From the NCBI GenBank assembly GCA_022843825.1, contig JALHMX010000019.1, forward strand, positions 1 through 36,921: a DNA stretch of 36,921 nucleotides. Direction: 5' to 3'. This DNA comes from Pseudobdellovibrionaceae bacterium. Its GTDB lineage: Bacteria > Bdellovibrionota > Bdellovibrionia > Bdellovibrionales > Bdellovibrionaceae. Positions 13,594-17,392 of the stretch are shown piece after piece (within the stretch, counting starts at the first letter, position 1; every line of letters starts with the position of its first letter). A program made the position numbers and the translations under genes. The notes beneath the pieces are model-generated. The model saw only the letters and a list, made by a program, of their open reading frames with translations, did no database searches and was not told the origin of the DNA.

Positions 13594-14280
13594 TTATGGA
13601 ATTTTCTTGAAAAAGCGCTTAAGTCGAAACGTTTGCGGGTTGCAAATAAAAGGAGCGGATTCCAAGGTCGCATCACAGCTGAGCCAAATATACTGGGCTT
13701 TACCTATAAGCAGATTCTCCGGCACATAGCCCCAAAAGCGTGAATCCTGAGAGTTATAGCGGTTATCGCCCATGACAAAGTATGCTCTCTCAGGAACTAC
13801 AAAGGTTTTTTCATCTACATCAGTAATTTCAGAATCTGGATAGAAGGCTACGGTGTAAGCTTTATCTCCATTATTTTCTGTGAAAACTCCAGCCTCAAAT
13901 TGCGGCGTCAGTGAAAGCACCCGGCCATTCACTGTTACCGTCATATCCTGAATGACTATTCGATCTCCAGGAAGGCCAATGAGTCGCTTAATGTAGAACA
14001 CCTCTCTATTTTCAGGATATCGAAAAACAACCGCATCTCCGCGTTGAGGCTGACGAAATTTTATGATCCAGCCATCACCTATTGGTGAACGCAAGCCATA
14101 GGTGTTTTTGTTCACTAAAATATGATCGTGAATCATTAAGTTGGGTAACATGCTTTCTGATGGAATCACAAAGGGTTCAAAGAAAAAACTGCGTATCGCC
14201 AAAAAAAGAAAAAAAGGAAGGAAGAACACCAAAAGTGTTTGGGGCCATCGTCCTTGTTTTCCTTTTTTTTTGATCAACAT
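13594..14280 (-). CDS. lepB: Signal peptidase I (second of a tandem pair)
   Basis: This membrane-bound serine protease removes Sec/Tat signal peptides. It has 228 residues, with one N-terminal transmembrane helix (about 14-32). The catalytic serine is S43 in PSESMLP and the catalytic lysine K98 in FYIKRLIGLPGD. The late signature MGDNRYNSQDSRFWGYVP is present. It is shorter than its upstream neighbour by about 60 residues, mainly at the N-terminus and in the middle insert. The gene begins one base after the stop of the first lepB copy. Both catalytic residues are intact, so it should be active. Confidence 0.94.
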   Translation of the reverse strand: MLIKKKGKQGRWPQTLLVFFLPFFLFLAIRSFFFEPFVIPSESMLPNLMIHDHILVNKNTYGLRSPIGDGWIIKFRQPQRGDAVVFRYPENREVFYIKRLIGLPGDRIVIQDMTVTVNGRVLSLTPQFEAGVFTENNGDKAYTVAFYPDSEITDVDEKTFVVPERAYFVMGDNRYNSQDSRFWGYVPENLLIGKAQYIWLSCDATLESAPFICNPQTFRLKRFFKKIP

Positions 14281-14281
14281 A

Positions 14282-15154
14282 TTATTGATTAACTGAGTGA
14301 CCGAATCGCGAAAGTCTTAAGGTTAATGGGTTACATATTATCGGCAAAAAGGGCAGCATATTTTCGCAACTGAGCCATACGAAACTAGCTCGACCCAAAA
14401 TATTTTTCTGCGGCACAAATCCCCAAAACCGAGAATCATGCGAGCTGTATCGATTGTCACCCATAACAAATAATTTATCCGGGGGAACTGTCCACTCACC
14501 GTCTCCAGCAAAACCGATGACATCCGTTTTGGGCATCAAAAGGCTGTACTCAATCGACTCATTTTCAGTTCGCTTAAGCCTTTCAAAAAAATGAACGTAA
14601 TTCGATTTAGAGTCATCGAAAGTTCCATCGTGACTATTAAAATCCTCGTCTCTCAACCAATCAAAGGCCACACTAGAGTTGGGTACGATTTTTTCTTGCA
14701 ACTGATCGTTAACATACAACGCTCCGTTATCAAATCGAACCTTATCTCCGGGAATTCCTACTACACGCTTAATAAAAAAAGTGCTCATGTCCACGGGATA
14801 CTTAAAGACTATAATGTCCCCACGCTGCGGTTCTGAAAACTTTACAATCCATTTTTCACTAAACGGCGCGCGCACTCCATAAACCATTTTATTCACAAAA
14901 ATATGATCATTGATCAATAGAGTAGGAAGCATCGACCCTGACGGAATAACGTAAGCCTCAAGAAACAACCAACGAATAGTCAGTGCTGCTAATATTGCCA
15001 GCAACATCGATCCCCAGCCCTCAGTCCAAAATAAGCGGTTGCTTGGATTAAGTCCGTTATACTTCTTATATCCTGGTTCTTTTTTTCCAAAGAAAGCTTT
15101 AAAAAAACCTACTTTTTTTCCTGTATTATTGCTGGCGCTTTGAATCTCACTCAT
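14282..15154 (-). CDS. lepB: Signal peptidase I (first of a tandem pair)
   Basis: This is a second complete signal peptidase I of 290 residues. An N-terminal cytoplasmic extension of about 45 residues is rich in lysine and glycine, followed by one transmembrane helix (about 48-68). The catalytic serine is S74 in PSGSMLPTL and the lysine K129 in FIKRVVGIPGD. The signature MGDNRYSSHDSRFWGFVP is present. A good ribosome site (AAGGATGG) precedes the ATG. It resembles the downstream copy closely in the five signature boxes, and the pair looks like an old tandem duplication with divergence outside them. Confidence 0.95.
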   Translation of the reverse strand: MSEIQSASNNTGKKVGFFKAFFGKKEPGYKKYNGLNPSNRLFWTEGWGSMLLAILAALTIRWLFLEAYVIPSGSMLPTLLINDHIFVNKMVYGVRAPFSEKWIVKFSEPQRGDIIVFKYPVDMSTFFIKRVVGIPGDKVRFDNGALYVNDQLQEKIVPNSSVAFDWLRDEDFNSHDGTFDDSKSNYVHFFERLKRTENESIEYSLLMPKTDVIGFAGDGEWTVPPDKLFVMGDNRYSSHDSRFWGFVPQKNILGRASFVWLSCENMLPFLPIICNPLTLRLSRFGHSVNQ

Positions 15155-15392
15155 TATCCATCCTTGCAGCTGTTATTTTGCCCCTATTTTTCCTTAAAAT
15201 ACAATGACTTAGTTACGCACGCCACATCATGTGAAACAAAAAAAGGAAAGGCTCCCGAGTTATGATTTTTTAAAAAAAGAAGGCCCCAACAACATTCCAT
15301 CGCTCATATACCCTCTGGGTTAAAGTCCCAACCTTGGTCTTGATTTCAAGTCAAAACAGTGAACGTACCGCAGTAGTTTTCTTTTTTAGGCA
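15155..15392. other. Intergenic region upstream of the lepB pair
   Basis: These 238 bases between the small membrane ORF and lepB hold no recognisable gene. On the minus strand I see a perfect short palindrome CTTGAAATCAAG near 15341-15352 and a CACATCATGTG palindrome near 15223. A GGGGCC run followed by seven T residues (about 15275-15290) has no convincing stem before it, so I do not call it a terminator. A 15-codon frame starts at 15307 but has nothing else to support it. A promoter for lepB is likely somewhere here, but I cannot pinpoint one. Confidence 0.4.
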
Positions 15393-15503
15393 CTAAATGC
15401 TTTGAATTATTGCAATGACTATAAAAATCATCACAATCAGCTTCAAAGACTCTTCAGAAATCTTTAAAAAGCGTCGATAACGTAAATACGTGGGTTTACG
15501 CAT
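15393..15503 (-). CDS. Small single-span membrane protein (36 residues)
   Basis: A 36-codon frame on the minus strand encodes a basic N-terminal half (MRKPTYLRYRRFLK) followed by one hydrophobic helix at about 20-34, ending IIQSI. An ideal Shine-Dalgarno, AAGGAGGT (15509-15516), lies 5 bases before the ATG. It is much better than any signal for the longer frame starting at 15581. The ribosome site sits in the loop of a small hairpin (15504-15522). The gene lies about 86 bases downstream of lepA and 238 bases before lepB. I do not recognise the protein; small basic single-span proteins include regulators of membrane complexes and type I toxins, but neither can be claimed. Confidence 0.6.
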   Translation of the reverse strand: MRKPTYLRYRRFLKISEESLKLIVMIFIVIAIIQSI

Positions 15504-15522
15504 ATCGGACCTCCTTCCGGAT
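15504..15522 (-). promoter_or_regulatory. Hairpin displaying the ribosome-binding site of the small membrane ORF
   Basis: In the minus-strand RNA, AUCCGGA (15522-15516) can pair with UCCGAU (15509-15504), giving six pairs with one bulged C. The loop is AGGAGG. The start codon follows immediately. This places the core Shine-Dalgarno in an exposed loop, and could modulate translation initiation. It is a short, computationally unverified structure. Confidence 0.35.
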
Positions 15523-15589
15523 GTTCGAAGATATATTCGCATAAAAGCTGTGGGGCCAATAAGCCTTACAGCTTTTTGCATTTTTAGAG

Positions 15590-17392
15590 CTAATCTTCGA
15601 CTTTAAGGATGGCCAGGAAGGCCTCTTGCGGTACGTCCACAGATCCGATCTGCTTCATACGCTTCTTGCCCTCTTTTTGTTTTTCTAAAAGTTTTCTTTT
15701 ACGAGAGATATCACCGCCGTAACACTTGGCTGTAACGTCTTTTTTGATGGCTCCGATGGTTTCACGAGCTATGACTTTTGATCCAATCGCCGCTTGAATA
15801 GCAACCTGATATTGCTGACGCGGAATAAGTTCTTTCATTTTTTCAACTAATGAACGTCCGCGAGCTTGAGCTTTCGAGTTGTGAACTATAATGGAAAGCG
15901 CATCCACTGGTTCGCCATTTAATAAGATATCCATTTTAACTAAGACCGCCTCTTGAAACTCAAGAAACTCATATTCAAGCGAGGCATAACCCTTAGTGAT
16001 CGACTTTAAACGGTCATAAAAATCCATCACCATTTCATTCATAGGAAGTTTGTATTCAATAATGACTTTTTTCTCGGTGATGTATTCCATTCTTACTTGA
16101 ATACCCCGCTTGTCTTCACAAAGTTTTAACAAGGCGCCAATGTATTCTGTCGGCGTATGTAGAGTTACTTTAACATAGGGCTCTTCCATTTTAGCTATTT
16201 GTGTTTCCTCTGGCATGCCCGAAGGATTTTCTAACATTAAAACGGTACCATCAGTTTTGGTAATTCGATATACCACCGTGGGAGCTGTGGTGATCAGATT
16301 CAAATTGAACTCTCGTTCAAGGCGCTCTTGAACGATCTCCATATGAAGAAGGCCTAAGAAGCCGCAGCGATAGCCAAAGCCAAGAGCCAATGATTTTTCA
16401 ACTTCAAATGTGAGTGATGAATCGTTTAAGCATAATTTATCTAAAGCATTTTTTAAATTTTGATACTCACTGGCCACCACTGGAAAAATTCCGGCAAAAA
16501 CCATGGGTTTAACTCGTTGAAATCCTGGAAGTTGTTCTTTTGACGGGTGCTTCGCACTGGTTAAAGTATCGCCGACCTTCACGTCGCGAATATCTTTAAT
16601 TCCACAAATTATAAATCCCACTTCTCCGGCCTGCAGAATATCCACAAAAACGGGAAATGGAGTGTACTTTCCCATACGTAGAACTTCGTAATCTTTATCG
16701 GTGGCCATGAATTTAACGCGATCGCCTTTTTTAATCTCACCATCCACGAGTCGAATCAGAACGACAACCCCTTGATAAGCATCAAACCAAGAATCGAAAA
16801 TTAATCCACGTGGAGTCAACGAACGATCGGCCTTGGGCGGCGGTATTTTTTCAATAACCGCTTCTAGGATCTCTTTAATCCCCAGCTTTTCTTTTGCTGA
16901 GGCATGAATTATGTCTGTGCAATCCAGGCCTACGGTATCTTCGATTTGCTTTTTAACTCCTTCAGGGTCAGCTGTGGGAAGATCAACTTTGTTGAGTACA
17001 GGAATAATTTCTAAATTGTTTTCAAGCGCCAAGTAAACGTTAGCCAGCGTTTGAGCTTCAACGCCTTGAGCTGCATCAACGACCAAAATTGCGCCTTCAC
17101 AAGCGGCTAATGAGCGCGATACCTCATAGGAAAAATCCACGTGCCCTGGGGTATCGATCAGATTGATTTGATACTCTTGCCCGTCTTTTTCAGATTTATA
17201 TTTAAGACTTACCGTCTGCGCCTTAATGGTGATTCCGCGTTCTCGCTCGAGATCCATGTTATCCAGAAACTGCTCTTTAGACTCGCGATCAGAAAGCGAT
17301 CCCGTGTACGACAAAAGCGCATCGGCCAGGGTAGATTTACCATGATCAATGTGAGCTATTATCGAAAAGTTTCTGATGTATTTGGGATCCAT
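15590..17392 (-). CDS. lepA: Elongation factor 4 (LepA)
   Basis: LepA is a ribosome-associated translational GTPase linked to initiation and back-translocation. At 600 residues it is the normal length. GTPase motifs are G1 AHIDHGKS near 13, G3 DTPGH near 81 and G4 NKVD near 135. EF-G-like domains II, III and V follow, and then the LepA-specific C-terminal domain with its basic region (residues about 480-600, including [18 protein letters not shown]). Its ATG overlaps the metK stop by one base (TAATG), showing translational coupling. Downstream are the small membrane ORF and the lepB pair, which recalls the common lepA-lepB linkage. Confidence 0.98.

What the first reader, a model, noticed from the sequence alone, without database searches (positions are those of the whole stretch)
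15393..15522. Unannotatable-size 36-residue membrane protein with an ideal, loop-displayed ribosome site
A full AAGGAGGT at optimal spacing precedes a 36-codon frame with a basic head and one hydrophobic helix, between lepA and lepB. The AGGAGG core falls in the loop of a 6-base-pair hairpin ending at the start codon. Gene callers would skip it or choose the longer, unsupported start at 15581. Candidates include a small partner of signal peptidase or Sec machinery, or a toxin-like peptide.
Basis: partly seen in the sequence, partly recalled or inferred. Interest (0 to 1): 0.55.

Follow-up and report, generated by a model that had tools for sequence, protein, structure and literature searches.

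The report
Multicopy toxin-like peptide with antisense RNA

Summary
The 36-codon ORF is a real gene (15393-15503, minus). It is not a lepA/lepB partner: this genome's second copy follows rpsI, and the element is absent at nine of nine other readable lepA-lepB junctions in the genus. The family occurs in 35 of 140 genomes of the order (93 places); at a stricter cut-off all 29 positive genomes of 368 in the phylum belong to that order. Across 92 copies I find: a GG-N10-GC, sigma54-like box; a 5' mRNA end that covaries with a segment about 106 nt after the stop codon; a strongly folded mRNA; a basic head plus one hydrophobic helix; a 5' hairpin with a terminator tail on the opposite strand (48 of 76) but rarely on its own (3 of 76); and, inside the ORF on that opposite strand, two boxes matching the published Bdellovibrio FliA promoter (TTAAG-N16-CCGATA), kept beyond protein needs (z 11.2 and 11.9). 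Best reading: a new type I toxin-antitoxin-like family with a predicted antisense RNA of about 98 nt. Toxicity and transcription are untested. The window copy departs from consensus in all three boxes (AG at -24, TTCAG, TCGATA).

The parts
15393..15503 (-). 36-codon toxin-like ORF: basic head, one hydrophobic helix
15509..15516 (-). Shine-Dalgarno AAGGAGGT
15577..15592 (-). sigma54-like -24/-12 box TAGCTCTAAAAATGCA (family: GG-N10-GC; here AG instead of GG); overlaps the lepA stop codon; predicted transcript start about 15566
   Evidence: in the anchor-only control 59 of 78 copies have GG exactly 10 nt before GC
15543..15557 (-). 5' strand of the 5'-3' long-distance pairing (GGCCCCACAGC and on)
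   Evidence: window copy: -26.2 kcal/mol, matched or beaten by 3 of 40 non-cognate partners
15282..15298 (-). 3' partner of the long-distance pairing (GGAATGTTGTTGGGGCC)
15272..15281 (-). T-rich tract after the 3' partner, possible 3' end of the mRNA (inferred)
   Evidence: sequence
15453..15457 (+). -35-like box TTCAG of the antisense FliA-type promoter, inside the ORF (4 of 5 of the published TTAAG)
15474..15479 (+). -10-like box TCGATA of the antisense FliA-type promoter, inside the ORF (5 of 6 of CCGATA); predicted antisense start about 15486
15543..15586 (+). terminator-like hairpin for an antisense RNA (14-pair stem 15543-15576, then TGCATTTTTA)
15486..15586 (+). predicted antisense (antitoxin-like) RNA, about 100 nt, covering start codon, ribosome site and leader (inferred)

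Best explanation
It is one copy of a new, dispersed family of type I toxin-antitoxin-like modules of the Bdellovibrio order. Sense strand: a 30-45 residue peptide with a basic head and one membrane helix, read from a compact, heavily folded mRNA. The mRNA's first nucleotides pair with a segment about 106 nt after the stop codon, and local hairpins tend to involve the ribosome site and start codon, so the full-length message should be poorly translated until its 3' end is trimmed, as in hok and aapA. Opposite strand: a FliA-type promoter inside the ORF makes an RNA of about 98 nt that runs across start codon, ribosome site and leader and stops at a terminator at the mRNA's 5' end; it would pair with the mRNA and block or destroy it. 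When the antisense RNA falls and the mRNA is processed, the peptide enters the inner membrane and slows or kills the cell. Shown: the gene family, its dispersal, 5'-3' covariation, terminator direction, nucleotide-level selection on the two antisense boxes, the GG-N10-GC box. Inferred: that the promoters are active, that the antisense RNA exists, repression, 3' processing, toxicity.
For: Family: 93 places in 35 of 140 order genomes at E<=0.001; at E<=1e-5, 29 of 368 phylum genomes, all in the same order. 5'-3' pairing: cognate duplex mean -26.7 kcal/mol against -18.9 non-cognate and -18.0 shuffled; in 63 of 79 copies at most 3 of 40 foreign partners do as well; 47 of 82 have a fixed-register 12-nt helix with several Watson-Crick types per position, against 72 of 400 non-cognate draws; 3' partner ends a median of 106 nt after the stop in the 69 copies measured. 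mRNA fold z mean -4.18, 69 of 81 below -2. 5' hairpin: cognate arms -13.9 against -7.6, n 82; terminator tail on the antisense strand in 48 of 76, on the sense strand in 3 of 76; the tool finds the window's terminator on the + strand only. Antisense promoter: published consensus TTAAG-N16-CCGATA (PMC3627812, passages read); synonymous resampling of 82 distinct ORFs: -35 matches 275 against 206.0 (sd 6.1), -10 matches 348 against 273.0 (sd 6.3), none of 2000 resamples reaching either. Intact peptides: 84 of 92, median 36 aa, median head charge +4. Three copies whose peptide is cut to 5-22 residues keep the leader (L064, L021, L067), which fits loss of a costly product.
Against: No expression or toxicity data. 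No sigma70 promoter enrichment on the antisense strand (9.43 against 9.53 shuffled, n 86). The unconstrained scan for the FliA pattern is only modestly enriched (22 of 91 at >=9/11, against 5 shuffled and 3 sense); spacing N15 gives 24; the best hit is at the predicted place in 55 of 91. The -35 variants counted as acceptable were chosen after seeing them. The -10 constraint could partly come from a start-codon hairpin (cognate -12.0 against -9.4). One of 15 slid control registers also deviates (z 5.2). A plain T count after the hairpin is less one-sided (mean 6.8 of 14 antisense, 5.2 sense; >=9 in 16 against 4 of 76). SD hiding is weakly supported: SD core paired in 75 of 81, but 71% with shuffled leaders; aSD/SD cognate -12.9 against -10.95. 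13 of 79 copies rank 15 or worse of 40 in the pairing test. The window copy departs from consensus in all three boxes. The seven G079 copies lack the 5' hairpin, though several keep the pairing. The FliA consensus comes from B. bacteriovorus and is carried over to relatives.
Confidence: 0.75

Rival explanations
1. A dispersed small regulatory or stress membrane protein, not a toxin: it modulates membrane physiology, and the RNA structure and antisense RNA only tune its dose.
For: Purifying selection on the frame; canonical sigma54-like sites of the own genome precede stress-type genes such as hsp20 and hemerythrin as well as flagellar genes.
Against: Copy number and patchy presence (35 of 140), a lineage-specific insertion at lepA and copies with a cut peptide that keep the leader fit a toxin-like selfish module better than a housekeeping peptide; so much layered repression is typical of toxins (general knowledge).
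Confidence: 0.15
2. A miniature mobile element (MITE-like) whose inverted repeats are transposition ends; the ORF is a passenger.
For: The two own copies are alike only within about 315 bp (alignment, boundary by eye); insertions at varied sites, often soon after a stop codon.
Against: The paired segments differ in sequence between copies while staying complementary, which transposase ends would not be expected to do; the frame is under selection. Transposases and target-site duplications were not searched for.
Confidence: 0.06
3. The hairpin with T-tract only stops antisense read-through into the neighbouring gene, and the ORF's codon bias comes only from mRNA structure; there is no antisense RNA.
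For: A start-codon hairpin overlaps the -10 box; no sigma70 promoter; 39 of 88 copies lie between convergent genes.
Against: The -35 box is constrained by itself (z 11.2): in [TASP]-K codon pairs the wobble base is T in 56 of 56 and Lys is AAA in 56 of 56, and no covarying stem was found around it; the spacing equals the published N16.
Confidence: 0.15
4. A partner of signal peptidase, LepA or the Sec machinery.
For: Position between lepA and lepB only.
Against: Absent at 9 of 9 other readable junctions in the genus; the second own copy follows rpsI.
Confidence: 0.01

Closest known systems
AapA/IsoA type I toxin-antitoxin family (Helicobacter pylori and relatives)
   Same: Several chromosomal copies, small toxic protein, 5'-3' long-distance interaction, SD-hiding hairpins, cis-overlapping antisense RNA (PMC6733600, passages read).
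   Different: No sequence family shared with any library searched; sigma54-like sense box and FliA-type antisense promoter; here the long-distance helix uses the extreme 5' end rather than an anti-SD. AapA itself was not aligned.
Hok/Sok family
   Same: Small membrane peptide, mRNA that needs 3'-end processing, multiple chromosomal homologues partly inactivated (passages of PMC6733600); antisense RNA over the leader (recalled).
   Different: No significant Pfam match, a library that holds Hok_Gef as far as I recall; antisense promoter lies inside the ORF; a second frame like mok was not looked for.
FliA (sigma28) attack-phase promoters of Bdellovibrio bacteriovorus
   Same: Box sequences and N16 spacing of the antisense promoter (PMC3627812, passages read).
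   Different: Here they lie inside a coding sequence and read antisense; -35 is mostly TTTAG, since the reverse complement of TTAAG would place a TAA stop in frame.
sigma28-dependent CjNC1/CjNC4 RNAs with predicted sigma54 targets in Campylobacter
   Same: A sigma28-driven RNA set against sigma54-driven genes (PMC4626219, title and start of abstract in the listing only).
   Different: Described there as RNA paralogues acting in flagellar assembly, not a toxin-antitoxin pair.

Membership tests
Type I toxin-antitoxin system | small hydrophobic peptide under about 60 aa | tested here: met
   84 of 92 copies intact, 30-45 aa, median best 15-residue hydropathy 2.58
Type I toxin-antitoxin system | antisense RNA overlapping the toxin mRNA | tested here: inconclusive
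   directional terminator and nucleotide-level selection on FliA-type boxes; no transcript data
Type I toxin-antitoxin system | peptide toxic, RNA neutralises it | not testable with these tools
   needs expression experiments
Type I toxin-antitoxin system | heavily folded toxin mRNA | tested here: met
   fold z mean -4.18; 5'-3' covariation
Type I toxin-antitoxin system | ribosome site hidden in the mRNA fold | tested here: inconclusive
   75 of 81 paired but 71% with shuffled leaders; aSD/SD -12.9 against -10.95
AapA/IsoA | sequence homology to AapA peptides | not tested
   no direct comparison made; Rfam gave no match at gathering score for the window and 10 loci
AapA/IsoA | 5'-3' long-distance interaction | tested here: met
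Hok/Sok | Hok/Gef family peptide | tested here: not met
   no significant Pfam match for any of 29 members; one chance-level hit to an unrelated family, E 0.14
sigma54-dependent gene | GG-N10-GC at -24/-12 | tested here: met
   59 of 78 by anchor-only control; but the window copy has AG, and the -12 part reads ATGC, not TTGC
sigma54-dependent gene | rpoN in the genome | tested here: met
   G000:C6; 126 of 140 in the order
sigma54-dependent gene | binding site for an activator | tested here: inconclusive
   nothing conserved in the 30 nt upstream of the box beyond a mild A/T bias; farther upstream not examined
FliA-dependent gene | TTAAG-N16-CCGATA boxes | tested here: met
   61 of 91 copies have a -35 variant accepted after the fact plus NCGA at -10; z 11.2 and 11.9
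FliA-dependent gene | fliA in the genome | tested here: met
   G000:C7; 126 of 138 over the curated cut-off

The most novel reading that the evidence does not exclude
The pair is wired into the flagellar and predation programme. The toxin message comes from a sigma54 promoter (the class whose canonical sites precede fliL and an flgF/G-like gene in this genome) and its antisense antitoxin from a FliA/sigma28 promoter (the late flagellar and attack-phase class). A cell with sigma54 on but FliA off or lost (stalled flagellum, failed switch) would lose the antitoxin and arrest itself: a toxin-antitoxin checkpoint on the predator's life cycle, spread as small selfish units.
Probability: 0.4. Interest if true: 0.9.

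Novelty: new variant of a known kind. Interest (0 to 1): 0.78.

Why it matters
In the open library I found no type I toxin-antitoxin system described for Bdellovibrio (read as listings only; most subscription papers are not held), and no significant match to a protein or RNA family library searched. It would give about 90 natural variants in which three overlapping codes (peptide, mRNA fold, antisense promoter) can be read apart, and a testable link between sigma54, FliA and toxin control in predatory bacteria.

Tried and rejected
Longer start at 15581: rejected, it lies in the -12 box. Sigma70 antisense promoter: no enrichment. Host-gene read-through as the general source of the mRNA: upstream gene on the same strand in 58 of 88 only. 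Hairpin around the ORF's CTAAA as the reason for its conservation: cognate 4.56 against 3.95, best in 0 of 60. Spread by phage or plasmid: no tblastn match of one member to phages or plasmids, no exact match of two patterns in viral contigs. rpoN and fliA presence as discriminating evidence: both near universal. A first look at the 5' boundary of the pairing was spoiled by window choice (part A: most duplexes start at the window's edge, offsets 4-6); the ungapped version peaks at 13-14 nt after the -12 C, 32 of 75 copies, though its score threshold is passed by 65% of non-cognate pairs too. Rfam at a lax threshold on the element: three chance-level hits. No structure prediction was run, since a single helix would add little. 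No covariance model was built.

Full report
What was checked. The ORF, its ribosome site and its place between lepA and lepB are as described; it is the only AGGAGG followed by ATG at 4-9 nt in the window. The claimed 6-bp hairpin is 4 bp and not better than chance.

It is a family. The 36 residues match a second place in the same genome (C23, 86% identical, next after a Ribosomal_S9 gene) and five places in one congener. A nine-row profile reached a sister genus; a 29-row profile found 93 places in 35 of 140 genomes of the order at E<=0.001, and 29 of 368 genomes of the phylum at E<=1e-5, all in that order. Of 29 members scanned, none has a significant match in Pfam, NCBIfam or PHROGs; in PADLOC one has a weak hit (E 0.0098). 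Rfam gives no match at gathering score for the window or 10 loci. I assembled 92 distinct copies; 84 have an intact peptide of 30-45 residues. In-frame selection: pN/pS 0.21 between the two own copies, median 0.56 over 136 pairs of 17 copies, against 0.74 and 1.94 in the other frames.

It is inserted, not resident. Of 11 lepA loci found in 10 of 14 genomes of the genus, one is the window and one contig ends 50 nt after lepA; in the other nine (eight genomes) lepB follows lepA with no element, including G005, which has five copies elsewhere. Nine named relatives whose junction I printed also lack it; at least some are the same genomes. The own copies are alike only over about 315 bp (boundary by eye). 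Upstream genes are on the same strand in 58 of 88 copies, with a median of 23 nt from stop codon to the box in those 58.

Sense promoter. 82 of 92 copies pass the filter for a box like TGGYNYNAAAAATGCA at 78-110 nt before the ATG. Because that score favours the pattern, I also anchored on AAAATGCA alone: 59 of 78 copies then have GG exactly ten bases before GC, against at most 10 at any other offset from -25 to -1. That is the sigma54 spacing (consensus recalled). In the 30 nt upstream nothing is conserved beyond a mild A/T bias, so no activator site is visible there. Canonical sites TGGCAY-N5-TTGCW occur 10 times in the own genome against 1 in the backward control, but 11 against 7 in G013. 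Of the own genome's 10 sites, seven downstream ORFs were given to Pfam; they include FliL, an FlgE/F/G-type rod protein, HSP20, hemerythrin and a response regulator. The family's -12 part reads ATGC, not TTGC, and both own copies have AG at -24, so sigma54 control of this copy is uncertain.

The mRNA closes on itself. The segment expected at the 5' end of a sigma54 transcript is complementary to a stretch whose end lies a median of 106 nt after the stop codon (69 copies). Cognate duplexes average -26.7 kcal/mol, non-cognate -18.9, shuffled -18.0; 33 of 79 copies beat all 40 foreign partners and 63 of 79 are matched by at most 3 of 40; the window copy by 3. Thirteen of 79 rank 15 or worse, four of them (L021, L063, L067, L069) with visibly altered ORFs. 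In 47 of 82 copies a 12-nt helix sits in one fixed register with several pair types per position; 72 of 400 non-cognate draws pass the same bar (helices were selected by score, so the share paired is inflated but not the variety of pairs). The ungapped helix starts most often 13-14 nt after the -12 C, that is at +2/+3 of the predicted transcript (32 of 75, with a weak threshold). The whole mRNA folds far better than shuffles (mean z -4.18, 69 of 81 below -2). Local SD and start-codon hairpins are only modestly better than non-cognate controls.

The opposite strand. The 5' hairpin's arms covary (-13.9 against -7.6, n 82). By the terminator criterion it has a T-tract on the antisense strand in 48 of 76 copies and on the sense strand in 3 of 76; a plain T count is less one-sided. 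In the window the tool calls it on the + strand only. Its left arm lies upstream of the predicted sense start, so it is best read as the terminator of an antisense RNA. In the ORF, [TASP]-K codon pairs are NNT-AAA in 56 of 56 (elsewhere T is the wobble base of such codons in 110 of 270 and Lys is AAA in 134 of 239). A Bdellovibrio bacteriovorus RNA-seq paper gives TTAAG-N16-CCGATA as the FliA-type motif of 92 of 140 attack-phase promoters (PMC3627812, passages read). On the antisense strand the constrained codons spell TTTAG (51 of 91), TAAAG (7) or TTCAG (4), 16 nt before CCGAAT (24), CCGATA (15), TCGAAT (10) and like boxes. Drawing synonymous codons for 82 distinct ORFs, the -35 and -10 matches exceed the null by 11.2 and 11.9 sd; 15 registers slid by whole codons give at most |z| 5.2. 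The reverse complement of TTAAG would put TAA in frame, which may explain TTTAG. An unconstrained scan is only modestly enriched (22 of 91 against 5 shuffled and 3 sense). The predicted antisense RNA has a median length of 98 nt (73-151) and starts inside the ORF in 91 of 91 copies by construction of the anchor. FliA is encoded in 126 of 138 genomes over the cut-off, own genome included.

Reading. The layout (multicopy, membrane peptide, fold-back mRNA, likely antisense RNA across the start site, some decayed copies) works like Hok/Sok and AapA/IsoA (PMC6733600, passages read) without a shared sequence family. Membership in 'type I' stays provisional because toxicity and the antisense transcript are not shown. 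The bold reading, a toxin under sigma54 and an antitoxin under sigma28, is not excluded by anything seen here.

Noticed in passing
window 13594-15154 (-): Two signal peptidase (Peptidase_S26) genes in tandem after lepA.
   Followed up: no
L096 (G068:C10) and L097/L098 (G079:C33, C24): Local arrays of three copies 0.7-2 kb apart with other ORFs between them; the G079 copies lack the 5' hairpin but several keep the 5'-3' pairing.
   Followed up: partly
L102 (G050:C12:139246 and 139614): Two very similar copies 368 bp apart, head to tail.
   Followed up: no
L121, L122, L123 (G001): A subfamily with a 27-residue peptide and AAGGACGG rather than AGGAGG before the start; L122 and L123 lie near contig starts.
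   Followed up: no
3' UTR of own-genus copies, window 15335-15356 (-): A well conserved hairpin TCTTGATTTGNAATCAAGACCA after the ORF (a variant in the window copy), not seen by eye in the sister genus's 3' UTR.
   Followed up: no
ORF codons 6-7 after the RR pair, family-wide (e.g. L003): CTAAA is fixed at nucleotide level in 56 of 56 [TASP]-K pairs; read here as the antisense -35 box, but it is also a YUNR-type loop sequence, a feature recalled from antisense RNA targets.
   Followed up: partly
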